From: Thalassobaculum sp. OXR-137
Lineage (GTDB): Bacteria; Pseudomonadota; Alphaproteobacteria; Thalassobaculales; Thalassobaculaceae
Assembly (NCBI RefSeq): GCF_034377285.1
Contig: NZ_CP139716.1
Coordinates: 62,001 to 126,000, forward strand
DNA length: 64,000 nt
Direction: 5' to 3'
The first letter of the stretch is position 1. The number at the start of each line of letters is the position of its first letter. The translations under genes and the position numbers were made by a program. The notes beneath the pieces are model-generated. The model saw nothing but the letters and a program-made list of their open reading frames with translations. It made no database searches and was not told where the DNA came from. Below are positions 2 to 12,540 of this stretch, one piece after another.

Positions 2-1078
2 CGCGAACGCGTGATGACGTGGCCTGGCCTGACCGGCGCCCGGCTGCTGCGAGAATTGCGGGACCTCGGCTATAGCGGCGGCTATACGGCGGTGACGGAT
101 TATCTGCGTGATATCCGTCCCGCGCCGACACCGGGTTATGAGATCCGCTTCGAGACACCTCCCGGTCAGCAAGGACAGGTCGACTTTGCTCAGTTCCAGG
201 TGGTGTTCACCGATGAGCCGGAACAGCCGCGGATCGTGTGGCTGTTCTCGCTGGTCCTGGGGCATAGCCGCCTGATCTGGGCACGGTTCGTCGCCCATCA
301 GGACCTAGCGACAGTGCTGCGCTGCCACGTCGCCGCCTTCGACGCGATCGGCGGCGTGCCACGCGAGCTTCTCTACGACCGCATGAAGACGGCGGTGATC
401 GGCGAAGCTGCTGACGGGGAGCCGCGCGGCATCGTCTACAACAGGGCCCTTGTGGATCTGGCCCGCCACTATGGCTTCCACCCGCGCGCGTGCCAGCCCT
501 ACCGGGCCAAGACCAAGGGCAAGGTCGAGCGGCCGTTCCGATACATCCGCGAGGACTTCTTCTTGGCCCGTTCGTTCCGCAACCTGGACGATCTGAACGA
601 GCAGCTGCGGCGCTGGCTGGACAGTGTCGCCAATCCCAGGGTGCATGCCACAACCCGGCGGGTCGTGAACGAGGCGTTCGCCGAGGAGAAGCCGCACCTG
701 CTGGTTCTGCCTCTGGCGCCGTTCCGCTCCGTACTACGTCTGGAGCGACGGATCTCCCGGGAAGGGATGGTAAGCGTCGGTGGCAACTTCTACAGCGTTC
801 CGGATGCCACCCGGCGGCGCACGGTCGAGGTGCACACGCTCGCCCAGGAGATCAGGATCTTCGAGGACGGCACGTTGATCGCGACCCATCCGGTCCTGGA
901 AGGCCGCCACCAGCGCCGGGTGGCTCCTGGACACCGAAAAGGAGGGGGCTCCACAGGACGAAGACGTGGAGCCGACGGAGATGTGGTCGTCAGCCGAACC
1001 GGCGACGTGGTCGCTCAGCGCTCCCTGGAGTTCTACGACGCTGTCGCTCGCCGTCTTGCCCGGGAGTGCCGGTCATGA
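2..1078 (+). CDS. istA: IS21-family transposase IstA (5' partial)
   Basis: DDE-type transposase that cuts and joins the IS21 ends together with IstB. The reading frame is open to the window edge, so the N-terminal HTH part is missing; the visible part starts in a region typical of about residue 75 of IstA (RLLRELRDLGYSGG). Catalytic-core motifs are visible: VDFAQ (first Asp), LLYDRMKTAV (second Asp) and KGKVERPFRYIRE (Glu). The C-terminal part has the Mu-type beta-barrel sequence (GNFYSVP). The stop codon overlaps the istB start by four bases (ATGA), which fits translational coupling. The gene looks intact apart from the window edge. Confidence 0.93.
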   Translation, partial: RERVMTWPGLTGARLLRELRDLGYSGGYTAVTDYLRDIRPAPTPGYEIRFETPPGQQGQVDFAQFQVVFTDEPEQPRIVWLFSLVLGHSRLIWARFVAHQDLATVLRCHVAAFDAIGGVPRELLYDRMKTAVIGEAADGEPRGIVYNRALVDLARHYGFHPRACQPYRAKTKGKVERPFRYIREDFFLARSFRNLDDLNEQLRRWLDSVANPRVHATTRRVVNEAFAEEKPHLLVLPLAPFRSVLRLERRISREGMVSVGGNFYSVPDATRRRTVEVHTLAQEIRIFEDGTLIATHPVLEGRHQRRVAPGHRKGGGSTGRRRGADGDVVVSRTGDVVAQRSLEFYDAVARRLARECRS

Positions 1079-1947
1079 GCGCTCCAGGTGATCTGACCCC
1101 GTCGACCCTGGAGCGGATCCGCCACGATCTGGTCGGTCTGAAAATGCCACGCGCCCTGGAAGCCCTCGATCAGGTCGTGCGCCGCCTCGAGCACGGGGAG
1201 ATCGGTGCTCTGGAGGCCATCGACATGCTGCTCGCCGAGGAACTGACCCTGCGCGAGAACAGCCGCATCAAGACGGCCCTGCGCATGGGCCGACTGGCGA
1301 CCATCAAGACGCTCTCAGGGTTCGACTTCTCCTTCCAGCCGTCGCTCGACCGCGATCGTATCCTCACCCTCGCACAACTCGGCTTTATCGGTCGCTGCGA
1401 GGTCGTCCACTTCCTCGGCCCGCCCGGCACCGGCAAGAGCCATCTGGCCATCGCCCTCGGCGTCGAGGCGGTGAAGGCAGGGCGCAGTGTCTACTTTTGC
1501 ACACTCGCCGACCTGCTCGGGCAACTCGCCCGCGCCGAGCGCGAGGGACGGCTGACGGAACGCATACGCTTCTTCTGTCGACCGGCTCTGCTGATCGTTG
1601 ACGAGATCGGCTACCTGCCCGTCGTTCCTGGGGGTGGCAACCTGTTCTTCCAGCTGGTCAACGCCCGATACGAGCGTGGTGCGATGGTCCTGACCTCCAA
1701 CCGCGGCTTTGCCGAATGGGGCGAGGTGTTCGGAGACCCGGTCGTCGCCACCGCACTCCTCGACCGCCTGCTGCATCATGCTCTGGTCATCCAGATCGAA
1801 GGCTCCAGCTACCGGTTGCGCCAGCACGCCGACCTCATGCCCGAGCACGTCCGCTCCAAGGCTACCATCACACCGCCGACCCCAGCACCGCTACGACGGC
1901 CAAGGGGACGGCCGCCCAAAAACGACCACATCACCGCGACAACCTGA
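1075..1947 (+). CDS. istB: IS21-family helper ATPase IstB
   Basis: AAA+ ATPase of 290 residues, related to DnaC, that assembles on target DNA and stimulates IstA. The Walker A motif GPPGTGKS is at residues 115-122 and the Walker B motif LLIVDEIGYL at about 172-181. The start is the ATG overlapping the istA stop; the longer open frame upstream (from 490) lies inside istA and is not used. The C-terminal tail is basic and proline-rich (RRPRGRPPK), which suggests DNA contact. Length and domain order are normal for the family. Confidence 0.95.
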   Translation: MSAPGDLTPSTLERIRHDLVGLKMPRALEALDQVVRRLEHGEIGALEAIDMLLAEELTLRENSRIKTALRMGRLATIKTLSGFDFSFQPSLDRDRILTLAQLGFIGRCEVVHFLGPPGTGKSHLAIALGVEAVKAGRSVYFCTLADLLGQLARAEREGRLTERIRFFCRPALLIVDEIGYLPVVPGGGNLFFQLVNARYERGAMVLTSNRGFAEWGEVFGDPVVATALLDRLLHHALVIQIEGSSYRLRQHADLMPEHVRSKATITPPTPAPLRRPRGRPPKNDHITATT

Positions 1948-2007
1948 CCGGCGAAACTGGGGAAATTTACTTCGGCGCTTCTGGGGAAATTACGGGCGGC
2001 ATTGACA

Positions 2008-2523
2008 GCCCTGGTCGACCCGGATCGTCTTCGGATAGCCGATCTGACCGCAGACCTGTTCCAGCGTCGCCACCACGTCTTCGCCCCGGTAGCTGAACCG
2101 CGGATCGAGCACCGGGACATAGCGCGAGTAGGTATCGACCACCGTCAGCACGGGGAGTTTGCGACCCGTCGCCAACTGGTCGTGCACGAAGTCCATCGCC
2201 CACACGTCCCTTGGCCCAACGGTCTCCGCGCGATCGTCACGCAGCTTGGCCTTCACCCGCCGCTTCGGCGTCTTGTTGCGCAGCTGCATGCCCAACTCCC
2301 TGTAAACGCGGTAGGTCTTCTTCATATTGATCGTCCAGCCTTCCCGCTTGAGAAGGACATGGACCCGTCGGTAGCCGAAGCGCACCCGGGTCTGACAGAT
2401 CTCCTTGATCCGCTGTTCCAAAGCGGCTTGGTCGGATCGACGCGAGGTGTATCGGTAGGTCTTGGGATCGAGCAGGATCGCCGCGCAGGCGCGGCGGATC
2501 GAGACCGCCCAGTCCGATCGCAT
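2008..2523 (-). pseudogene. IS3-family transposase OrfB, 3' truncated
   Basis: The leftward frame encodes the HTH_21 region (RIKEICQTRVRFGYRRVHVLL) and the start of the rve integrase core (DVWAMDFVHDQL, first Asp; VVDTYSRYV). It stops at RVDQG, where family members continue with the Ser-Glu-Phe segment. The five residues after that point come from the IS21 end. The last catalytic Glu is therefore absent and the protein cannot transpose the element. OrfB would normally be made by -1 frameshifting from orfA. Confidence 0.9.
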
Positions 2524-2560
2524 CGCATCGCATCGACCAGCGTTCTCTTCCGACCAGGCC

Positions 2561-2830
2561 TCAGAACTTTCGCTTGATGTCCTGCAACATCTCCTTGTCG
2601 AGCGCCAGATCGGCGACGATCTTCTTCAGGCGAGCATTCTCATGCGCGAGCTCTAGCTCGCGCATCCGCCGCATCTCCGACGGCATCATGCCCGCGTACT
2701 TCTTCTTCCAATTGAAGTAGGTCGCCTGGCTGATCACTGCCTGACGGCAAAGCTCCGCCACCGGTGTTCCTTCCTCGCCCTCCTTGATGATGAACGCCTT
2801 CTGCGCGTCCGTGAACTTGGATGCCTTCAT
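2561..2830 (-). CDS. IS3-family OrfA (HTH_Tnp_1)
   Basis: An 89-residue protein starting MKASKFTDAQKAF, typical of IS3-family OrfA. It has an N-terminal helix-turn-helix (VAELCRQAVISQATYFNWKKKY) followed by a leucine-zipper-like helix (ELAHENARLKKIVADLALDKEML). It binds the terminal repeats and is normally fused to OrfB by programmed frameshifting. The gene is intact, but its partner orfB is truncated, so it is probably inert or only a regulator of related IS copies. Confidence 0.9.
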   Translation of the reverse strand: MKASKFTDAQKAFIIKEGEEGTPVAELCRQAVISQATYFNWKKKYAGMMPSEMRRMRELELAHENARLKKIVADLALDKEMLQDIKRKF

Positions 2831-3053: not shown

Positions 3054-3431
3054 ATGTCTCCACCGCCACCTAATGCCGAGACCGTCAACGATCGCGCCAA
3101 GCTGCTGTACCACCGCATCGTCGCCCGCCAGATTGCCACTGACCCCGATCTCATCGACCGCGCACGTCGGGTCATCTCCCAATGGCGCTCTATGGGCCAC
3201 CAGTACGACGTCTTCGACGAATGGGACCGTCTGCTCAATCTCGATCCCGCCCAGCTTCGGCGCCTGATAACCGAGCGGTCAGAGAACATGACGCGCTTGC
3301 GGATTAGCTCACCGCTGGGGATCGCGAGTGGCCTCTTCGTCAACGATGAAGCCTTGCGTCGCCGTATCCGCCGGAAGGCGAAGAATGGGTTGCTGCTCGT
3401 CGCCAAACGCCGGGCCGACGCGGTTGTCTGA
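3054..3431 (+). CDS. Hypothetical protein next to the exonuclease module
   Basis: A 125-residue, basic, mostly helical protein. I do not recognise a named family. The central part (VISQWRSMGHQYDVFDEWDRLL) is amphipathic, and the C-terminal region (TRLRISSPLG...RIRRKAKNGLLL) is positively charged, which suggests nucleic-acid contact. It converges on the leftward operon ending at 3441, with only 9 bp between the stops. A long leftward frame (2910-3200) overlaps it but has less natural composition. A modest AGG lies upstream of the ATG. Confidence 0.6.
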   Translation: MSPPPPNAETVNDRAKLLYHRIVARQIATDPDLIDRARRVISQWRSMGHQYDVFDEWDRLLNLDPAQLRRLITERSENMTRLRISSPLGIASGLFVNDEALRRRIRRKAKNGLLLVAKRRADAVV

Positions 3432-3440
3432 CCGGCTTCC

Positions 3441-4028
3441 TCAGTCGATCCTGGTCCTCAACAACTTCCGAAACTCCTCGCTCAACCCGGCCCCCAAGCC
3501 CCATTCGGCAGCTTGCTGGTCCGACCCAGCCAACCACTTTGGGAGCCAGCCCTGGTCGATTGCCTCCGGCTCAATCGGCTCCAGCCGAACCCGTTCCCGA
3601 AGAACCGTCAGAACCGTCTGAAGCCTCTCCTCCGCTTCCGGCTCCGGCGACATCGTCAGCGCTATCTCAGTCAAATATCCAAGTCGTCGGCGCCCGGCTC
3701 CGCTGAGGCTATCCGGATCCGGAATGGCCCCGGTCACCAGGAATGCCACCAGGCGATTCAAAGCCCGTCCGTCACCGCCGTTCCAGGCAAGCCTATCGTC
3801 CAGAAATGGAGAGAACTGAGTGCCCGTGGCAGACCGGCCGTCGAGGAACTGGTGAAGGGCCTCGTACGAGGCGTCCTCAAGTCCTCGTCCAGCCATCCGG
3901 TTGTAGGATGGCCCGCCGTCCACGGCGATGTTGCCGCAGCTGCACTCGACATAATCGTGGGTGTGTTTGCTTTCGATGATGTCGCCACATCGCAGGCATC
4001 GAGCAGCGTTCCGCGCAAGCTCCGCCAC
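3441..4028 (-). CDS. Small zinc-ribbon protein (DUF7695-like N terminus)
   Basis: About 195 residues. The N-terminal region has paired cysteines, CLRCG and CSCGN, spaced as a zinc ribbon, followed by DGGPSYNRMAG; this resembles the DUF7695 group. The C-terminal half is acidic and helical with no recognised fold. I chose the GTG at 4028 because GAGGAG lies 6-8 bases upstream. The ATG at 4220 would overlap the preceding gene by 118 bp and adds residues of poor composition. It is the last gene of the leftward operon. Function is unknown; the zinc site is inferred from the cysteines. Confidence 0.65.
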   Translation of the reverse strand: MAELARNAARCLRCGDIIESKHTHDYVECSCGNIAVDGGPSYNRMAGRGLEDASYEALHQFLDGRSATGTQFSPFLDDRLAWNGGDGRALNRLVAFLVTGAIPDPDSLSGAGRRRLGYLTEIALTMSPEPEAEERLQTVLTVLRERVRLEPIEPEAIDQGWLPKWLAGSDQQAAEWGLGAGLSEEFRKLLRTRID

Positions 4029-4102
4029 AGCAGTCTCCTCGGCCTCGAACCCCAACAAGCGACCAGACGACCGGGTCAGATCTCCCGATCCGAGTTCAAA
4101 CT

Positions 4103-4459
4103 CTAGTTGACCGAGAGCTTGAGTATCTCCTCCGGCAGGCCACGCTCGTCCATACCCTGGCCGAGCCGGTAGTATCGAGACATGGTGCGAACCCACCCGT
4201 GATCCGGCGCCACCACCCACAAGTCCGACGTCCGCCCGGGGCCATTGCCGATGCGAGGATGCCCAAGGATCAAACCAGTCAAGCAGGGAACCGGCACGTA
4301 GGTCTTGCTGTAATGGTCGATCAGTGGCGCTGCCGCGAGATCTGCCTCGGTTGGACCTTCACCTGCTCGAATAGCCTTCAGGTCGGCCAACAGGCGCTCG
4401 CACCGATCGATGTACAGTTCAATGTGAGGCGACAAACCTCGGGCCGTCAGAAAGATCAT
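4103..4459 (-). CDS. DUF6634-like protein (copy 2)
   Basis: A 118-residue protein. Motifs in order: CERLLADLKAIRAGEGPTEA, LAAAPLIDHY, PCLTGLILGHP and GWVRTMSRYYRLG. I recognise this pattern as the DUF6634 group of plasmid and prophage proteins of unknown function; the assignment is from memory. It is paralogous to the neighbouring gene at 4503-4811 (shared LLGDLKAIAAG and SGYYRLG-type endings). It lies third in the leftward operon. Confidence 0.75.
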   Translation of the reverse strand: MIFLTARGLSPHIELYIDRCERLLADLKAIRAGEGPTEADLAAAPLIDHYSKTYVPVPCLTGLILGHPRIGNGPGRTSDLWVVAPDHGWVRTMSRYYRLGQGMDERGLPEEILKLSVN

Positions 4460-4502
4460 CAGATCCTCCGTGATTGGTGTTTGCAGCTGATTTCAGGCTT
4501 CT

Positions 4503-4811
4503 TCACTTCCGGTCTGCGGGAACCCCCAACCGGTAATATCCTGAGCGCGTTCTCGCCCACCCAAGCTTTGGTGCATGCAACATAAGAAGATGCGCACCGG
4601 TGCTTTCCGAAGAATCAACCGGCTTTCCGTCAACCTGACCGGCCAGGCTGGGCAACGAGAGAGTGGAAACTTCATAGAGATCCAGGATCGGCGCCGCAGC
4701 CAATTCGGTCTCTGTCGGTCCGCCACCTGCCGCGATCGCCTTCAGATCGCCAAGCAGGCGCTCGAACACCTCGATCTCATAGCGGTACCTGTTCTTCTGG
4801 CTCGGTTTCAC
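4503..4811 (-). CDS. DUF6634-like protein (copy 1)
   Basis: About 102 residues from a GTG start at 4811, whose GTGA overlaps the TGA stop of the upstream exonuclease-like gene; this four-base overlap implies coupled translation. An ATG at 4907 also exists, but it would overlap the upstream gene by 100 bp. Motifs shared with the paralogue downstream are FERLLGDLKAIAAGGGPTET, LAAAPILDLY and WARTRSGYYRLG. Two tandem, diverged members of one small family in an operon suggest a duplicated regulator or a heterodimer (inference). Confidence 0.7.
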   Translation of the reverse strand: MKPSQKNRYRYEIEVFERLLGDLKAIAAGGGPTETELAAAPILDLYEVSTLSLPSLAGQVDGKPVDSSESTGAHLLMLHAPKLGWARTRSGYYRLGVPADRK

Positions 4812-5578
4812 GGTCCGCTGATCCCGTTGCCCGTACTCTCGTACAGGGGGCTGTGTGAACTTCGGACATTCAGGTGCGGCCGGTTCCCGGACGTGAGTTC
4901 GATGCACTCGTTGCTGGAATCAAGAAACTCACGGAAAGTTCCTAGATTCATTTGCTTTTTGTTGAACAACGTTAGGCCTGTCACCAACATCAATCCCAGT
5001 GCGTGAACTTCGAGCTTTCTAATACCGCTGAGGGTTTCGCTGGATGGAACGATGGCGTCCGCCAATGCGTCATCGAGTGTCAGCGGTGCACGGTCTGGGT
5101 ACTGGACTTGCCACAGGTCCACATGTTGGGCTCGTAGCAATCCGTACTGCAGTGGCGCTGAAGACCAGGTCAGATCGTCCGTCGATAGACCCCCGGCCCG
5201 AAAGCGCGATTGCAGGAACGGAACATCGAACTCCGTGCCTCTCCACGTGATCAGCAATGGCTGATTTGCATTCTGCAGAAACTCGTGCAGCGCCCGCAGC
5301 AGGGATTTCTCGTCCTCATGCATCGTGGAGTGCTCTTCGCCGGTACAGAATCCTTTGGTCATGTGCGCAGTGACGTGATCGATCTTGAGACCGACCCCAG
5401 TCGATCCGAAGGAAATGCGACCTCCAGCCAGCGCAAACGCACCTAAGTGCAGGCCGTTGGCGCCGCTCTGCCCAGGGACAAGGAATTCGGCGCTCCCGCT
5501 TTCCTTCGCGGACTGATCTCGGGCGCCGAGTACCAATGCCAGGGTCGTCCGGGTGCGCCCAGCTTCCGGTGAATCCAT
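4808..5578 (-). CDS. PolB-type 3'-5' exonuclease-like protein
   Basis: A 256-residue protein resembling the predicted 3'-5' exonucleases related to the PolB proofreading domain (RNase H fold). The segment LLITWRGTEFDVPFLQSRF corresponds to the second exonuclease motif (N/T-x-x-x-F-D), followed by HVDLWQVQYP and LTLDDALAD. The canonical first D-x-E motif is not evident in the N-terminal strand (TLALVLGARD), so catalysis is doubtful. It is the first gene of a leftward four-gene operon and is divergent from an XRE regulator; the 226 bp between them contains a strong inverted repeat. Confidence 0.7.
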   Translation of the reverse strand: MDSPEAGRTRTTLALVLGARDQSAKESGSAEFLVPGQSGANGLHLGAFALAGGRISFGSTGVGLKIDHVTAHMTKGFCTGEEHSTMHEDEKSLLRALHEFLQNANQPLLITWRGTEFDVPFLQSRFRAGGLSTDDLTWSSAPLQYGLLRAQHVDLWQVQYPDRAPLTLDDALADAIVPSSETLSGIRKLEVHALGLMLVTGLTLFNKKQMNLGTFREFLDSSNECIELTSGNRPHLNVRSSHSPLYESTGNGISGP

Positions 5579-5708
5579 CGCACCACCTCACGTCGTTGAA
5601 ATCACGAGCATTGGGTAGCTCGCCGATCAGGTGTCTGCCCGATTCGTTCAGACCGCCTCATCGTTGGCAGAGACCGTATCACCACGAGTCCCCCAATGAA
5701 ACCCATAA

Positions 5709-5755
5709 AAGTTATCTTTGATCACTTTTATGCATCATAGATAACTTCCTATAAT
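5709..5755. promoter_or_regulatory. Candidate operator/promoter between divergent operons
   Basis: A perfect 9-bp inverted repeat, AAGTTATCT (5709-5717) and AGATAACTT (5739-5747), lies in an AT-rich patch. A TATAAT box at 5750-5755 follows immediately on the rightward side. The arm overlapping the promoter spacer would let the XRE protein encoded 50 bp downstream repress its own promoter, and perhaps the leftward operon. The binding protein is inferred. Confidence 0.6.
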
Positions 5756-5804
5756 ATCCCATCGACGCTCTGGACCCAGACGACCGGAACCCAGAGCATG
5801 TCGA

Positions 5805-6104
5805 ATGCTTCCGAGTGTGCACATGCTACGGATCGCTCGCCTTACGTTACGGTGGAGCCAAAGACACCTAGCCGAGCGCGCAGGTGTCGCCCAGCCCGTG
5901 GTGGCTCGAATGGAAAAACTCAAAAGCAATCCGACTGCCAAAACGATGGCAACGCTCGCCAAAGCCCTGGAAGAAGGTGGTATCGATTTCCTTCCCGCTT
6001 CCGATCGGCATTGGGAGACCATTGCGCTCCGCAAGGATTTCCCACGCGAAACGTTAGAGGGTCCGCCCACGTCATCTGCTGGGAAGCCAGAGTCGAAGGA
6101 GTAA
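5805..6104 (+). CDS. XRE-family transcriptional regulator
   Basis: A 99-residue protein with a single Cro/CI-type helix-turn-helix: LRIARLTLRWSQRHLAERAGVAQPVVARMEKLKSN, then TAKTMATLAKALEEGGIDFLP, as in SinR-like and antitoxin regulators. It lies between two divergent exonuclease-type genes and just downstream of the 5709-5747 palindrome, so it is the likely local repressor. An internal ATG six codons later is an alternative start. Confidence 0.85.
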   Translation: MLPSVHMLRIARLTLRWSQRHLAERAGVAQPVVARMEKLKSNPTAKTMATLAKALEEGGIDFLPASDRHWETIALRKDFPRETLEGPPTSSAGKPESKE

Positions 6105-6223
6105 GTCCCATCGACCGTATGGATTTGAACTTAGTCCACATGTGTTCCATGCGTCGGTGAGATGGACTTACGACTGACGACACTCACTCCGGAATACCCA
6201 AGATCGCCACTCCGGGAATCGAT

Positions 6224-7147
6224 TTGATCAACCCAGCCGACTACAAATCCTTAGCCGACGCATTGGAGCGCAGCCCTGACTACCGCGTCCTGCGCCGGGT
6301 GGTCAGCCACGATCAGTTCGCAGCACCGATCGGCGAGACCAAGGTCGGTATCATCCTGGACACGGAAACGACCGGCCTGGATCCGCGCACCGATCAGATC
6401 ATCGAGTTGGCGATGCTCGCGTTCGAATACGACGAGCGCGACCAGGTTTGCCAAGTCCTAGAGCGGTACCAGTCGTTCAACGATCCCGGCCGACCAATCC
6501 CTCCCGAAGTGACGCAGCTAACCGGCATCAGCGACGACATGGTTGCCGGTCACTCCATCGACTTGGCTACGGTCGAGCGATTGGCTGAAACGGCCGTCAT
6601 CGTGATCGCCCACAACGCAGCCTTCGACAGGCGGTTTGCAGAGCGGCTTCATCCGATCTTCGGCAAACGCGGATGGGGTTGCTCGCTATCCGAAGTCCCA
6701 TGGAGCGACGCCGGGATCCGAAGTGCCAAGCTTGAGTATCTCGGCATGTGCTTCGGCTTGTTCCATGACGGGCACCGGGCGATCGCGGATTGCGAGATGC
6801 TGCTCGAGATCCTGGCCATGCCCTTCCCGAAAACCGAGACGCCGACGCTTGAACTGCTTCTTGAAGCCGCCCGGAAGCCGACGTTTCGGATCTGGGCGCT
6901 CGATAGTCCGTTCGAACTCAAGGACCTGCTTAAGGCACGGGGGTATCGCTGGAACGACGGAAGCGACGGCAATTCCAAGGCTTGGTATCGGGATGTTCCC
7001 GGAACCGACCTAGAAGCCGAGAGGACGTACCTACGGACAGAGATCTACTCAGGGCCGTTTCAACCCTACGTCGTTCGTATGACTGCCATGACCCGGTTCT
7101 CGAATAGGATCGGGGAAATCGACCATGCAGACGCAGCCGCCGCATGA
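6224..7147 (+). CDS. DnaQ-like DEDDh 3'-5' exonuclease
   Basis: A 307-residue protein whose first two-thirds is an exonuclease of the DNA polymerase III epsilon type. Motif I is ILDTETTGLDP (about residues 44-54), motif II is IAHNAAFDRRFAE, and motif III is HDGHRAIADCEML, with the DEDDh histidine. The C-terminal part (DSPFELKDLLKARGYRWND...KAWYRDV) resembles the small domain found after DnaQ folds on plasmids and in DUF5710-type proteins. It may degrade single-stranded DNA or RNA ends. It follows the XRE regulator by 119 bp. Confidence 0.88.
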   Translation: MINPADYKSLADALERSPDYRVLRRVVSHDQFAAPIGETKVGIILDTETTGLDPRTDQIIELAMLAFEYDERDQVCQVLERYQSFNDPGRPIPPEVTQLTGISDDMVAGHSIDLATVERLAETAVIVIAHNAAFDRRFAERLHPIFGKRGWGCSLSEVPWSDAGIRSAKLEYLGMCFGLFHDGHRAIADCEMLLEILAMPFPKTETPTLELLLEAARKPTFRIWALDSPFELKDLLKARGYRWNDGSDGNSKAWYRDVPGTDLEAERTYLRTEIYSGPFQPYVVRMTAMTRFSNRIGEIDHADAAAA

Positions 7148-7391
7148 GCAGTGCCAGTTGGTTCCTGGCAACCGATATCCGACCACTATGGTCTGGCCTC
7201 GATAAACGGCGCTTTCCCGGACCTGACACCCCGAAAGGTGCTTCATGTTTATCGACTGCTCGGCGCTCGAGCAGTCTGTCGGCGTCGAAGAACGCAGAGT
7301 GCATTCGCCAGTCCAACCCTGGCGCATCAGGTCATTGCTGGTGTGACCCAAGCCCTGGGCAACAGGCTCATCAGGCGGAAACGGGAGAGAC
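7148..7391 (+). other. Intergenic stretch without a convincing gene
   Basis: About 240 bp between the exonuclease and the amidohydrolase. Short frames run through it but lack ribosome sites and overlap the downstream start. A GGGAGA just before 7392 is the ribosome site of the amidohydrolase. Confidence 0.5.
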
Positions 7392-8213
7392 ATGCAGATC
7401 GTTGACGCGCAGATACATCTCTGGGGAACCGGCCTGCCAAGCAACATGGCTCACTGGCAGGTGACGTCGTTCTGTCCGGCAGAAGCCATTGCATTGATGG
7501 ACCAAGCCGGTGTCGATGCTGCGGTGATCCACCCACCATCATGGGATTCCGGCTCAACCGACCTCGCGATCGAGGCGGTCAAAGACTACCCCGGCCGTTT
7601 CGCCATCATCGGTGCCGTGGACCTGGGGCAACCGGACACCAGCCGAGCCTTAATGGAACGTTGGCGCGAACAACCAGGCATGCTTGGTTTGCGCTGCATG
7701 TTCCTTGAGGGCGAGGATCGCCAAAGACTGCACGATGGCGAACTGGGTTGGTTCTGGGACGCCGCCGAGCGTTTCGATATTCCTGTGACCACCTTGGCGA
7801 CCGGCTCGCTTGAACTCTTGGGAGAAATCGCTGCTGCATACCCTGGTCTGCGTCTGAGCATCGATCATCTCGGCGGCAGGGGAGGCAACACGACGCTCAA
7901 AGACGATGCCGCGATGACGCACATGCCCGACCTTCTGAAGCTTGCCAGACTGCCGAATGTCGCCGTCAAGGCAACCGGTGTACCGGGCTACTCCGGCGAG
8001 AGCTACCCCTTCCCGGTCATGAGCTCCTATGTCCGACAGGTCTTCGATGCCTTCGGTCCCGACCGGGTGTTCTGGGGGACCGATATTTCCAAGATGCCAT
8101 GCACCTGGCGCCAGTGCGTGACCATGTTCACCGAGGAGATGCCTTGGCTCACTGGCGATGACTTGTCCCGGGTCATGGGAAGCGCCGTACGCGACTGGTG
8201 GGGGTGGCCGTGA
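7392..8213 (+). CDS. Amidohydrolase family protein (amidohydrolase_2)
   Basis: A 273-residue TIM-barrel hydrolase of the amidohydrolase_2 group (2-pyrone-4,6-dicarboxylate lactonase or uronate-isomerase-like). It starts MQIVDAQIHLWG, a variant of the D-x-H metal site; SIDHLGGRGG carries a further His, and FWGTDISKMP the conserved Asp. The substrate cannot be told. It is metabolic in character and probably unrelated to the adjacent exonuclease module, likely cargo brought by an earlier rearrangement. GGGAGA precedes the ATG at good spacing. Confidence 0.85.
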   Translation: MQIVDAQIHLWGTGLPSNMAHWQVTSFCPAEAIALMDQAGVDAAVIHPPSWDSGSTDLAIEAVKDYPGRFAIIGAVDLGQPDTSRALMERWREQPGMLGLRCMFLEGEDRQRLHDGELGWFWDAAERFDIPVTTLATGSLELLGEIAAAYPGLRLSIDHLGGRGGNTTLKDDAAMTHMPDLLKLARLPNVAVKATGVPGYSGESYPFPVMSSYVRQVFDAFGPDRVFWGTDISKMPCTWRQCVTMFTEEMPWLTGDDLSRVMGSAVRDWWGWP

Positions 8214-8976: not shown

Positions 8977-10014
8977 CTAGCTCAAATTCGCAATTTGCGC
9001 TGCTGCATCGGGTGACTTCCCAAGACTACGTTCTAACCTCTCCCGCCAGCGCGGGCCGCGGGCGATTGCGTCCTCGTAGGCTTCCAGCAGGTCGGTGGGA
9101 CGGTCTTGCGAAAGGACCCCGATCATCAGTTCCGCCTGGAGTCGATCCTTACGCGCCTTCAGGCTTTCAGGCCCGTCCCGTCGGCGGTCGGCGACGATGA
9201 GTTTGTGGATGGCGAACCGCTCGGGTCGGGGAAGTTGCACGAGAATGCCGTCTCTGTAGACAGCAGCGGCGTGGATCGGTTCGGCGATGAGGAAATTCAG
9301 ATAGTGGAGCGTCTGGGCGCTGACGCCGAGCGCCGCCAGGTCCCGGAGCCCCTCCTCCGAGTCAAAGCTAGGCGCCAGGAACTCGACCAACGTCTGGCTC
9401 CGCGTTTGCCGCCATCGCCAGATCCGGCCGGCCTCTAAAGCCGGTACCGGTTCAAACTTGAAATCGTGAAGCACATCACCGATCGACGGCAGGACGCGTT
9501 CACCCAGAGCGAGGGACAATTTTTCAAAACTGGCGATGTCGATGTCGTTGGTCATCGCCGCCTGGTCCAATGTCAAGTTCAGTCCGAGCTCGCCTTCGTA
9601 GATCCGAAAGCCGGTGGTCCCAACCAGGACTCCGCCCAGTCGGAACACCCCTGCCCGCTCGAACGCAGCGAGCAGACTACCCGTGGCGCTGTCGATTCCC
9701 AGGAAGCGCTCGCTTCGAAGCAGCCGAACAAGCCGTGCGCGTTCCCGACGGCGTTCCTCACGATCGGCCTTCAGCGTCTCATGTTGTTCGATCCGCCGGA
9801 GCAGCTCTTCCGATTCTTCGCCGAGATAACGCTCCTTCATCTCGACGCCGACCCGATAGCGATCGTACCAATACGTTCGGGAGCCGCGTACTCTCGGCGT
9901 CGGGATCCCTCGGATCTGAGAGACCGCCTCGTCGAGCAGCAACGAAACGAGATCGTGATAAGCCGCAAGCGCGGTGGCCGAGTGACGGCGAAGAACTGGC
10001 AAGGGCTTGGCCAT
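8977..10014 (-). CDS. GSU2403-type nucleotidyltransferase-fold protein
   Basis: A 345-residue protein matching the NTP_transf_8 / GSU2403 group. An N-terminal helical region (RGSRTYWYDRYRVGVEMKERYLG) leads to a coiled-coil basic stretch (EERRRERARLVRLLRSE). The nucleotidyltransferase core follows, with VLVGTTGFRIYEG and the acidic pair MTNDIDIASF (D-x-D). FAIHKLIVADRRR lies near the C terminus. Members often sit on plasmids, sometimes in toxin-antitoxin-like settings. The start lies six bases from a perfect palindrome, implying tight control. It is downstream of parAB in the same orientation. Confidence 0.85.
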   Translation of the reverse strand: MAKPLPVLRRHSATALAAYHDLVSLLLDEAVSQIRGIPTPRVRGSRTYWYDRYRVGVEMKERYLGEESEELLRRIEQHETLKADREERRRERARLVRLLRSERFLGIDSATGSLLAAFERAGVFRLGGVLVGTTGFRIYEGELGLNLTLDQAAMTNDIDIASFEKLSLALGERVLPSIGDVLHDFKFEPVPALEAGRIWRWRQTRSQTLVEFLAPSFDSEEGLRDLAALGVSAQTLHYLNFLIAEPIHAAAVYRDGILVQLPRPERFAIHKLIVADRRRDGPESLKARKDRLQAELMIGVLSQDRPTDLLEAYEDAIARGPRWRERLERSLGKSPDAAAQIANLS

Positions 10015-10216: not shown

Positions 10217-11188
10217 TTACCCACCCCGTAAAATCTCTTCGATGCGTCCCGCCTGATCCGTCGACAGAGGCTGATCCAGCTTGATTGTCCAGGATGACTC
10301 AGTCCGCGTCACGACAGCCCGGCGCGCGCCTCCCGCATCGACGATCTCGACCTTTTCCCGCATCGACTTCGGCGCGCCCTGCCCTGCCCCGGCCTTCAGG
10401 ATGGCCGCAATCTGCTTGCCTGTGTCACCGAGGCTGGCCACCCGATCGAGAATGCCCTCAATCGCCTTGCGGCTGGGTCGGTCGGCCCAGGCATCGACGA
10501 TCTGCAGAGCAGCCGCCTTGGAAACCTTCCGGGGATCCGCAAGGACCTCTCGAATCTCAACTGGAAACCCAACACCGATCTTCTGAAGCTCGCTGACATA
10601 CCCTTTTGAAAACCCCGTGACCTTCAGCAAGTCGGTATTTGCCAGCCCGAACCTTTCCTTTACGGCGATCATCCAGACCCCGAGCTCCAGCGGCGTTGGA
10701 TTGAGCCTGAGGTTGTTCTCACTCCACATCGCCGCGAGAGCGTCGTGATCATCCAAGTCCTGAACGCGTGCGAGAATCGTCCGGCCAAGCTCTCGACATG
10801 CCCGCAATCGGCGACGGCCAGCGATGAGCTCATAGCCCTCCCCTCCCCGTCTCGGCCGGACTGTAACCGGCTGATCTTGTCCACGGCTCGCGATAGAGGC
10901 TTTGAGGTCCTCAAACTCCTGATCATCACCTCGGACTTCGAGGCGATCCGAAACCAAGCCATCTTCGATGGTCGACGGGTCGAGCTCGAGCAGCATTGAG
11001 CCGGAATGCACAGCCTTGTCTCGTTCCGCACGCAGCGCTTCGTTCTCGGCAGCGATCGATTTGACCGACGACGTAAACATCCCAGCAATCGGGGCCTGTG
11101 GACCGATATTTCGGGGTTGAGGTGGGTTCCCATCACCCTCCGGTCGACCAAAGGTCCTCGGACGCGACTTCTTCTGATCGGCCATCAC
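10217..11188 (-). CDS. parB: ParB/RepB-type partition protein
   Basis: A 323-residue protein with the ParB N-terminal nuclease-like fold: GQDQPVTVRPRRGGEGYELIAGRRRLRACREL carries the GERR-like box, here as AGRRR. An HTH follows (GVWMIAVKERFGLANTDLLKVTGFSKGYVSELQK). The C-terminal segment is a dimerisation region. It binds centromere-like sites and acts with ParA in plasmid segregation. Its ATG overlaps the parA stop (ATGA), as in parAB and repAB operons. RepB proteins of repABC plasmids have a similar architecture. Confidence 0.92.
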   Translation of the reverse strand: MMADQKKSRPRTFGRPEGDGNPPQPRNIGPQAPIAGMFTSSVKSIAAENEALRAERDKAVHSGSMLLELDPSTIEDGLVSDRLEVRGDDQEFEDLKASIASRGQDQPVTVRPRRGGEGYELIAGRRRLRACRELGRTILARVQDLDDHDALAAMWSENNLRLNPTPLELGVWMIAVKERFGLANTDLLKVTGFSKGYVSELQKIGVGFPVEIREVLADPRKVSKAAALQIVDAWADRPSRKAIEGILDRVASLGDTGKQIAAILKAGAGQGAPKSMREKVEIVDAGGARRAVVTRTESSWTIKLDQPLSTDQAGRIEEILRGG

Positions 11189-12420
11189 ACGGCCTCCCGC
11201 TTCTCATCCCAGCGGCGGCGCCAAAGAACTGTCCAGATGTCTTTCTCGATTTGCTTCATAGCCCTGGTGATACCTGCCATACCTGTTTTCATCGTCTTCC
11301 GCGCGACAGTATCTGGCAAGCTTGCATGCGGAAGCGTCTGGTCCGCAAAGGACGCCGTGATCAATTCTGTCTTCGGTACGACCTCACCATAGACCAGGTC
11401 GCGCCCAAACGTGTCGTAGACACTGGCCATGATTGCCTTTTCAGCCGGCGAGTTACCGTCGCATTTGCCCATCAACAGCCGCAGCATTGGGAAATTGAAC
11501 GCTTCCATGCCAACCGCTTCCTGGATCTGACGGCCGGTCGACGCCACAACAGACAGGAACTGGATTGTCGACCTAAGGTCCAGCATCGTCGGGGTGAAGG
11601 GCACAATCAGCCCTCCATCGCTCGCGGCATAAAGCGCCGAAATCGGTAGCAATCCGAGATCCGGCTTACAGTCGATCAACACCACATCATAGTCGGCCGA
11701 CACGTCACCGATAAAAGCGTCGATCAACGTATAGAACTGGAACGCCGAATCCTCACGGATCCGCGCGATCATCGAGAATTCGAGATCCTGCAGTTCGAAT
11801 GTGGCCGGCAAGATGTCCACACCGCTCATGTAGGTCTGCCGAATAAGACTCGATGCCTCCGCCCCATGATAGAAGCCTGCCAGACTATGGCCGGGTTCGA
11901 TGACCTGCTCTGCGGGGAAAACCCGCAACGTATTTGTCGCCGAGCCCTGAGGGTCCGCATCGATGATCAGCACCCGCAGCCCGCCATGCAGAGCCAGATG
12001 CGAGGCCGCGAGCAAGGTCGTCGTGGACTTGCCTGATCCGCCCTTATAGTTGGCGACGGCGATAACCGCGCATTCTTCGCCGATTATCGGTTGTCGAGCG
12101 GGTAGATACGAGATGTTTCCGGACGCCGCGAAAATGAGCCGCCGCATTTCCGCAATCTCGGCAGGCGAATAGACCATCGCTGGACCGCGCCGCCGACCGG
12201 CCGGAAAGTCAGGCAGATTCTCCGCGTAACGGGCAAGCGCCGGGCGTGAGACGTTCAGAAAGCCGGCAACTTCCTGGAAGGTATAGAGCCGAGGCCGCGA
12301 ATGAGATTCCGGTTGCCCTTCGCTCTCCGCAAGCAAACTCTGCGATCGGGACCAGGCGATATCCAGTGCCTGCTGACCTTGATCAACGAGATGTTCAACG
12401 TCCCCGAGCCTATCTGCCAT
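11185..12420 (-). CDS. parA: ParA/RepA-type partition ATPase
   Basis: About 411 residues. The N-terminal part holds a MerR-like DNA-binding region (YTFQEVAGFLNVSRPALARYAENL), as in P1-type ParA and RepA proteins that autorepress. The deviant Walker A motif is NYKGGSGKSTTT; DADPQGSATN (A') and VVLIDCKPDLGLL (Walker B) follow. I chose the ATG at 12420 because GAGG precedes it; an ATG 16 codons earlier is possible. It is divergent from the replication gene, with an inverted repeat between them, and starts the parA-parB operon. Confidence 0.93.
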   Translation of the reverse strand: MADRLGDVEHLVDQGQQALDIAWSRSQSLLAESEGQPESHSRPRLYTFQEVAGFLNVSRPALARYAENLPDFPAGRRRGPAMVYSPAEIAEMRRLIFAASGNISYLPARQPIIGEECAVIAVANYKGGSGKSTTTLLAASHLALHGGLRVLIIDADPQGSATNTLRVFPAEQVIEPGHSLAGFYHGAEASSLIRQTYMSGVDILPATFELQDLEFSMIARIREDSAFQFYTLIDAFIGDVSADYDVVLIDCKPDLGLLPISALYAASDGGLIVPFTPTMLDLRSTIQFLSVVASTGRQIQEAVGMEAFNFPMLRLLMGKCDGNSPAEKAIMASVYDTFGRDLVYGEVVPKTELITASFADQTLPHASLPDTVARKTMKTGMAGITRAMKQIEKDIWTVLWRRRWDEKREAV

Positions 12421-12540
12421 CTTGGCCTCGCATCGAAAATGTTGTGGATACCCGGCAGCTTCCAACACACCTCGTTGTAGCTAGGCACCACGCCCTTTGC
12501 ATTTTCGACTTGATCTTTCTTCCACGATCCTGTCAACCTT

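What the first reader, a model, noticed from the sequence alone, without database searches (positions are those of the whole stretch)
3054..7147. Divergent two-exonuclease module with DUF6634 paralogues
A PolB-exonuclease-like gene, two DUF6634-like paralogues and a zinc protein run leftward from one promoter region. An XRE regulator and a DnaQ-like exonuclease run rightward. ATGA/GTGA overlaps and one operator suggest a single system. I know of no described system with this combination; its location beside mobile elements and plasmid maintenance genes suggests a defence, entry-control or addiction role. The function is inference.
Basis: partly seen in the sequence, partly recalled or inferred. 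Interest (0 to 1): 0.7.

Follow-up and report, generated by a model that had tools for sequence, protein, structure and literature searches.

The report
Regulated DUF6634 module on a plasmid
A small cluster of genes beside one switch protein on a marine bacterium's plasmid is a real, conserved unit, a cut-down relative of a widespread and little-studied gene set on mobile DNA, and it may protect its carrier against other invading DNA, though that is not shown.

Summary
The genes are real and the neighbourhood is conserved: two other Thalassobaculum genomes keep amidohydrolase - DnaQ - XRE // [AAA+] - [exo] - DUF6634 - DUF6634 - zinc protein, and Nisaea keeps XRE // AAA+ - exo - DUF6634. Corrections: (1) only DnaQ looks like an intact exonuclease; the PolB-type protein keeps the fold and the Exo II aspartate but has no D-x-E and no Exo III motif. 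(2) An AAA+ ATPase of the unit is missing in the window and deleted in frame in one relative; 45 of 70 DUF6634 loci examined have an AAA+ gene within 3.5 kb, often an FtsH-like protease. (3) Gene 3054-3431 runs rightward. Additions: a palindrome at the XRE start codon is kept in four of four loci (one with a mismatch), and a 127-bp non-coding element follows DnaQ or XRE in the same four; the one further copy found lies 289 bp from a CBASS operon. Best reading: an XRE-controlled mobile accessory module, more likely for conflict with phages or plasmids than housekeeping. Anatomy is well supported, function inferred. The DnaQ family occurs on many plasmids in other settings, so 'two-exonuclease system' is not supported as stated.

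The parts
3441..4028 (-). Zinc-ribbon protein, 195 aa, DUF7695 N-terminus with an extra C-terminal part; GTG start
   Evidence: Pfam PF24749 75.3 bits (run on the longer frame 3441-4220); start chosen by alignment with the L006 and L016 homologues, 61-62% identity
4103..4459 (-). DUF6634 paralogue #2, 118 aa, the most constrained gene of the leftward run (dN/dS 0.08-0.11, dS 1.3-1.7)
   Evidence: Pfam PF20339 53.1 bits; AlphaFold model pLDDT 87.5
4503..4811 (-). DUF6634 paralogue #1, 102 aa, GTG start overlapping the exo stop by GTGA
   Evidence: Pfam PF20339 32.3 bits (longer frame)
4808..5578 (-). PolB-exonuclease-fold protein, 256 aa, Exo I and Exo III motifs absent (probable pseudo-exonuclease)
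   Evidence: Pfam RNase_H_2 24.6 (cut-off 22) and DNA_pol_B_exo1 23.4 (cut-off 23), PolB_exo2 20.8 below its cut-off of 24
5704..5747 (.). AT-rich intergenic stretch with two overlapping 9-bp inverted repeats, followed by TATAAT at 5750; possible second operator, weak
   Evidence: no sigma-70 consensus site by scan
5795..5809 (.). Palindrome AGCAT-N5-ATGCT overlapping the XRE start codon; proposed autoregulatory operator
   Evidence: same place in L007 and L016, one mismatch in L006; one match in the window, 0.03 expected
5805..6104 (+). XRE/Cro-type regulator, 99 aa
   Evidence: Pfam HTH_3 36.8 bits
6224..7147 (+). DnaQ-like DEDDh 3'-5' exonuclease, 307 aa; DTE, NAAFD and HRAIAD present
   Evidence: NF006615 383 bits; motif positions
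7150..7276 (+). Conserved 127-bp element, probably non-coding, single copy in this genome; predicted hairpin at its 3' end
   Evidence: no Rfam match at the gathering threshold
7392..8213 (+). Amidohydrolase (PF04909); syntenic neighbour in three Thalassobaculum genomes, probably not functionally part of the unit
3054..3431 (+). Convergent gene of unknown family, 125 aa; syntenic in L006, fragments in G003; boundary rather than a part

Best explanation
The stretch is a mobile, XRE-controlled accessory module of Thalassobaculum and relatives, a reduced member of a wider alphaproteobacterial set in which DUF6634 proteins sit beside an AAA+ ATPase or FtsH-like AAA+ protease. Shown: conserved order, open reading frames with low dN/dS, one exonuclease with all catalytic motifs (DnaQ), one degenerate exonuclease, no ATPase gene here, a conserved palindrome at the XRE start codon, a conserved 127-bp element downstream. 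Inferred: XRE represses both divergent units through that region; when repression is lifted, DUF6634, the zinc-ribbon protein and the pseudo-exonuclease act as recognition or adaptor parts for foreign DNA or a phage protein, with DnaQ as the only nuclease and, in full versions, the AAA+ protein as motor or protease. The most likely benefit is defence of the carrier element or host against competing mobile DNA.
For: Synteny in two congeners and part of it in Nisaea. The four of 36 genomes of the order with DUF6634 are the four of 61 relatives with the 127-bp element. Of six genomes of the genus, the same three have DUF6634 and the close DnaQ; a fourth keeps only fragments of the zinc gene and the 3054-type gene in what I found. 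dN/dS between window and congeners 0.08-0.27 for DUF6634, zinc and DnaQ genes (dS 0.68-1.68, partly saturated). AAA+ gene within 3.5 kb in 45 of 70 DUF6634 loci, 40 of the 54 not at an edge; XRE in 12, TnsB-like in 13, TnsA-like in 12, metallophosphoesterase in 13 of 70. As a small control, the same AAA+ profiles found nothing in seven stretches of 14-20 kb fetched for DnaQ or zinc-gene matches nor in L128. Palindrome kept. The only other copy of the element found lies 289 bp from a CBASS operon with cyclase, E2, phospholipase and CapP-like genes.
Against: PADLOC has no match (E up to 1) for the DUF6634, zinc, exo and 3054 proteins; DnaQ and XRE match only broad models. DnaQ relatives lie in other contexts, once joined to dinB. 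The ATPase that marks the wider set is missing here, so the module may be decaying. DnaQ is near only 4 of 70 DUF6634 loci, the zinc protein near 3, the degenerate exo near 3. 25 of 70 loci show no AAA+ nearby, 14 of them not at an edge. One element beside one CBASS is a single case; the XRE palindrome is not found at that locus even with one mismatch, nor at nine XRE genes of other DUF6634 loci.
Confidence: 0.42

Rival explanations
1. A plasmid or island DNA-maintenance module: DnaQ proofreads or repairs element DNA, the leftward proteins help replication or recombination, and XRE only keeps dosage low. No defence role.
For: The DnaQ family is on 371 plasmid records, once overlapping dinB beside SOS genes (Caulobacter sp. 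S6) and once within 5 kb of a polymerase Y gene (Microvirga terrae); the window has ParA/ParB-like genes at 10217-12468; a dUTPase-like frame lies near the L006 copy (name by eye).
Against: No replication or recombination family passes its cut-off among the leftward genes other than the exonuclease-domain matches of exo; transposon-type genes and, once, CBASS nearby.
Confidence: 0.3
2. Two independent units that happen to be neighbours: XRE-DnaQ (an old plasmid gene) and a decaying DUF6634 remnant whose ATPase is gone.
For: ATPase not found in the window and deleted in frame in L006; DnaQ rarely near DUF6634 elsewhere; Nisaea has XRE next to the ATPase without DnaQ nearby.
Against: The genes are open and dN/dS is 0.08-0.27 between window and L006, both without the ATPase, though part of that divergence may be older than the loss; DnaQ and DUF6634 are present or absent together in the genus.
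Confidence: 0.2
3. An addiction (toxin-antitoxin-like) module: one leftward product is toxic and XRE restrains it.
For: The small XRE has weak likeness to HipB-type antitoxins (TIGR03070 23.4 bits, cut-off 71.65); a HipA-like frame lies near the T. litoreum copy (L016 4349-5704, by eye).
Against: No toxin family found in the leftward genes; four leftward genes is unusual for such a pair (recalled).
Confidence: 0.08

Closest known systems
DUF6634 - AAA+/FtsH-like loci of Alphaproteobacteria (annotated only as DUF6634 family protein, AAA family ATPase, metallophosphoesterase, 3'-5' exonuclease; e.g. Methylorubrum extorquens pCMU01)
   Same: DUF6634, a divergent HTH gene, a PolB_exo2-type exonuclease in the neighbourhood
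   Different: The window has no AAA+ gene and no metallophosphoesterase nearby, has tandem DUF6634, DUF7695 and DnaQ, and its exonuclease is degenerate
NF006615 (PRK09182) 3'-5' exonuclease
   Same: Match above cut-off, DEDDh residues present
   Different: Here between an XRE gene and the 127-bp element; the four plasmid copies whose surroundings I read have other neighbours
PF10108 / PolB-type DEDD exonucleases
   Same: Fold, profile match 97.2% over the middle part with the Exo II aspartate
   Different: No D-x-E and no Exo III motif
Small phage proteins with the DUF6634 fold
   Same: Five BFVD models at E 0.001 or better, two of them named, both uncharacterised proteins of Rhizobium and Sinorhizobium phages
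   Different: No sequence match of DUF6634 #2 in the phage collection, no significant profile match in phage phiM9

Membership tests
DEDD 3'-5' exonuclease, PolB_exo2 branch (gene 4808-5578) | RNase H-like exonuclease fold | tested here: met
   AlphaFold pLDDT 72.8 from 5 sequences; Foldseek to family B polymerases E 1.6e-5, TMq 0.43; hhalign 97.2% with intact relatives, window residues 44-185 only
DEDD 3'-5' exonuclease, PolB_exo2 branch (gene 4808-5578) | Exo I D-x-E | tested here: not met
   No D-x-E before Exo II in the window protein. In the MAFFT register R-D-Q stands where intact relatives have D-I-E or D-L-E; hhalign does not align this part. A one-column shift would give D-Q-S here, D-Q-D in L033 and D-P-E in the Nisaea copy, so Exo I may survive in Nisaea
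DEDD 3'-5' exonuclease, PolB_exo2 branch (gene 4808-5578) | Exo II aspartate | tested here: met
   D118, invariant in six sequences, same register in hhalign; the Exo II asparagine is R here
DEDD 3'-5' exonuclease, PolB_exo2 branch (gene 4808-5578) | Exo III Y-x3-D (or H-x4-D) | tested here: not met
   None after Exo II in the window, L033 and L036 proteins; YCETD or YCKAD in L027, L056, L061
DEDDh exonuclease NF006615 (gene 6224-7147) | Model score and DEDDh residues | tested here: met
   383.1 bits against 207; DTE, NAAFD, HRAIAD in sequence
DUF6634 (PF20339) | Score over the curated cut-off | tested here: met
   53.1 and 32.3 bits against 27
DUF7695 (PF24749) | Score over the curated cut-off | tested here: met
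   75.3 bits against 25
AAA+ - DUF6634 locus type | AAA+ ATPase next to DUF6634 | tested here: not met
   None by profile in the first 20 kb or by tblastn in the window (best E 0.43); best in the genome is part of an 821-aa frame on another contig
Known defence systems in PADLOC-DB 2.0.0 | A specific model matches the genes | tested here: not met
   Only general XRE and DEDDh-type matches
Tn7-like cargo | TnsA/TnsB-like genes near the module | tested here: not met
   None within 3.5 kb in the window; the contig beyond was not examined for a distant transposon
SANTA / RFTS-type domain (DUF6634) | Same fold | tested here: inconclusive
   Best PDB matches Z 5.3 or lower, rmsd 4-5 A over 63-71 residues for the top five; Foldseek best E 0.19; no SANTA match by Pfam in 57 members

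The most novel reading that the evidence does not exclude
An undescribed defence module with its own conserved non-coding element: XRE controls a divergent pair of units in which a degenerate PolB-type exonuclease and DUF6634 paralogues with a fold shared with small phage proteins act as sensor or decoy, DnaQ (and, in full versions, an AAA+ protease) acts as effector, and the 127-bp element, shared with a CBASS locus, is an RNA or a recombination site that moves such modules about.
Probability: 0.13. Interest if true: 0.85.

Novelty: new variant of a known kind. Interest (0 to 1): 0.5.

Why it matters
It ties DUF6634, DUF7695 and a degenerate PolB-type exonuclease to one regulated, mobile unit and to a wider AAA+/FtsH-like set in Alphaproteobacteria, and it gives a concrete, testable operator and a conserved 127-bp element shared with a CBASS locus. 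If it is a defence module it would be a new one; if not, it still names the partners needed to work out DUF6634.

Tried and rejected
Exo protein in plasmids by tblastn: no match. Zinc protein in plasmids: six records, at most 34% of the query covered, 38-48% identity, all Pasteurellaceae-type hosts. First genome-contig scan with exo alone: 27 stretches, no relative. DUF6634 #2 in the phage collection: none; in viral contigs two loci. The 127-bp element: no match in plasmids or phages by blastn, none for one exact 25-base pattern in viral contigs, none in Rfam at gathering; by covariance model in 385 class genomes two hits, both Thalassobaculum, with stricter filters. The model found it in 5 of 84 sources, all five being copies it was built from, so none in the other DUF6634 or DnaQ loci given. 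An RNA structure for the element is not established: z -3.3 for one strand, but one compensatory pair in five sequences and a covariation term of +0.44. The idea that the element marks one slot with exchangeable modules was dropped, because a 941-bp stretch shared by the two Nisaea loci lies on different sides of the element. DUF6634 as a SANTA domain: weak fold match, no sequence support. An ORF in phage phiM9 with a TS...T..SRYxL stretch was seen by eye (L122 10065-10490), but the family profile gave E about 20, so it is no evidence; whether it is the BFVD protein was not tested. PADLOC on an FtsH-like protein gave general AAA hits such as IetA. My first reading, that Exo I is lost in all three exo homologues, did not hold up on recheck and was narrowed.

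Papers: no hit for DUF6634, for DUF7695, or for three narrow multi-term searches (FtsH with Tn7-like cargo; FtsH with DnaQ and metallophosphoesterase; PolB exonuclease with defence island). A search on SANTA and RFTS listed 12 of 4,932 papers, none with the words SANTA domain; listing only. PMC12016528 was seen as search listing, passages and section 13; the word exonuclease does not occur in its main text. No other paper was opened.

Rows dropped before the count: L033, L034 and L036 (same loci as L006, L016, L007), short search loci L001-L005, L008-L014, L020, L021 and L028-L030 (the last three are further DUF6634 loci, each with an AAA+ match), L019 (match below cut-off, none in my scan) and L026 (fetched for its ATPase). 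The 70 are a mixture: 56 of the 59 loci, 2 viral contigs, 5 of the 26 plasmid hits, and 7 from whole genomes including the window, two of these (L006, L007) fetched through exo. 'Edge' means DUF6634 within 2.5 kb of the end of the stretch. The labels TnsA-like and TnsB-like rest on Pfam matches near or under cut-off for the representatives scanned (TnsA-like 13.5 bits against 26.5 and none; Mu-transpos_C 23.8 and 21.0 against 21.7); TniQ and TniB representatives pass theirs.


Full report
Where it is. The window is bases 62001-126000 of contig C2 (169,010 bp) of a 5,646,840-bp genome in 3 contigs.

Genes. Leftward: exo 4808-5578, DUF6634 #1 4503-4811, DUF6634 #2 4103-4459, DUF7695 zinc protein 3441-4028. 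Rightward: XRE 5805-6104, DnaQ 6224-7147, then an amidohydrolase 7392-8213. The gene 3054-3431 is convergent and matched no family in Pfam, NCBIfam, PADLOC or PHROGs.

Synteny. L006 (MAG, same genus) and L016 (T. litoreum) keep amidohydrolase, DnaQ and XRE, divergent from DUF6634, DUF6634 and the zinc gene; identity to the window is 58-89% for all but XRE (38-48%) and exo (29%, L006). L016 has a 518-aa AAA+ ATPase and a third DUF6634 but no exo found; L006 has exo and a 122-aa frame that matches only the two ends of the ATPase, so the P-loop is deleted; Nisaea has XRE // ATPase - exo - DUF6634. In the window no ATPase trace was found between XRE and exo, and the best match elsewhere in the genome is part of an 821-aa frame on another contig. 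In a fourth congener, G003, I found only pieces of the zinc gene and the 3054-type gene and no DUF6634.

Selection. Between window and the two congeners dN/dS is 0.08-0.11 for DUF6634 #2, 0.20-0.27 for #1, 0.25-0.27 for the zinc protein, 0.11-0.14 for DnaQ and 0.09-0.10 for the amidohydrolase; XRE and exo are too diverged for a useful value. dS is often above 1, so values are rough, and part of the divergence may predate the loss of the ATPase.

The exonucleases. DnaQ has all DEDDh motifs. The exo protein has the PolB exonuclease fold and matches intact PolB_exo2 relatives from other DUF6634 neighbourhoods (L027, L056, L061) with 97.2% profile probability, but only over residues 44-185. It keeps the Exo II aspartate, has R for the Exo II asparagine, and has no D-x-E before and no Y-x3-D or H-x4-D after. 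The homologues in L033 and Nisaea also lack Exo III; the Nisaea copy has a D-P-E that could serve as Exo I. I read the window protein as a binding protein rather than a nuclease; this is inference from residues.

Wider family. One scan gave 59 DUF6634 loci with named organisms; with loci from other searches I counted 70. Within 3.5 kb, 45 of 70 have an AAA+ gene (40 of 54 not at an edge), 30 best matched by the FtsH-like profile and 15 by the profile of the Thalassobaculum kind. In an earlier clustering, 26 of 30 FtsH-like frames from 28 loci keep HExxH; the other four are short frames or N-terminal halves of split ones. Also within 3.5 kb: metallophosphoesterase 13, TnsB-like 13, TnsA-like 12, XRE 12, DnaQ 4 (window, two congeners, Nitrobacter vulgaris), zinc 3, degenerate exo 3, intact PolB_exo2 2. 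The same AAA+ profiles found nothing in seven stretches fetched for DnaQ or zinc matches, a small control.

DUF6634. The model of #2 is confident (pLDDT 87.5): two helices and a set of six short strands, plus a C-terminal helix. No PDB match at E 0.001; the best are SANTA and DNMT1 RFTS domains at Z about 5, which may be chance. Among viral models five match at E 0.001 or better; the two with names are uncharacterised proteins of Rhizobium and Sinorhizobium phages. A phage-related origin is thus possible.

Regulation. The palindrome AGCAT-N5-ATGCT overlaps the XRE start codon in the window, L007 and L016, with one mismatch in L006; the window has one such site against 0.03 expected. XRE genes of nine other DUF6634 loci do not carry it, nor does L128. 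The inverted repeats at 5704-5747 are weaker evidence.

The 127-bp element. After DnaQ (in Nisaea, after XRE) lies a stretch 84-89% identical to the window copy, with a 2-nt gap in the Nisaea copies that speaks against coding. Among 61 relatives it is in four genomes, the four of the order that have DUF6634. The one extra copy found is in Nisaea contig C82, 289 bp from a CBASS operon: cyclase, E2, phospholipase, and a CapP-like gene beside an XRE-like frame. The two Nisaea loci share 225 bp around the element and a further 941-bp stretch placed differently. What the element is remains open: an RNA, a terminator with an unusually conserved body, or a recombination site.

Conclusion.

Noticed in passing
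window 7150-7276 and L128 8628-8752: 127-bp conserved element also present 289 bp from a CBASS operon in Nisaea; nature unknown.
   Followed up: partly
L128 4157-8338: CBASS-type operon (cyclase, E2, phospholipase) with CapP-like metallopeptidase and an XRE-like frame in a Nisaea MAG.
   Followed up: yes
L128 11033-12126: Pair that looks like an Xre/MbcA antitoxin and RES toxin near the CBASS operon (by eye; no PADLOC match).
   Followed up: no
L015 2780-5677 and other DUF6634 loci: TnsA/TnsB-like genes close to DUF6634-AAA+ genes; 12 and 13 of 70 loci within 3.5 kb; the labels rest on weak Pfam matches.
   Followed up: partly
XRE genes of L044, L054, L058, L059, L078, L082: Apparent start codons lie in a shared ATGGTTAAC (GTGGTTAAC in L082) stretch, perhaps another operator-at-start-codon arrangement.
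   Followed up: no
window 8977-10014: NTP_transf_8 nucleotidyltransferase (210.6 bits) beside the ParA/ParB-like genes at 10217-12468.
   Followed up: no
window 11-2830: IS21-like istA/istB and IS3-like genes (names recalled from the sequences) next to the module.
   Followed up: no
L016 4349-5704: HipA-like frame beyond the amidohydrolase in T. litoreum (by eye).
   Followed up: no
L006 8843-9292 and 9774-11792: dUTPase-like and tyrosine-recombinase-like frames beyond the module in the MAG (by eye).
   Followed up: no
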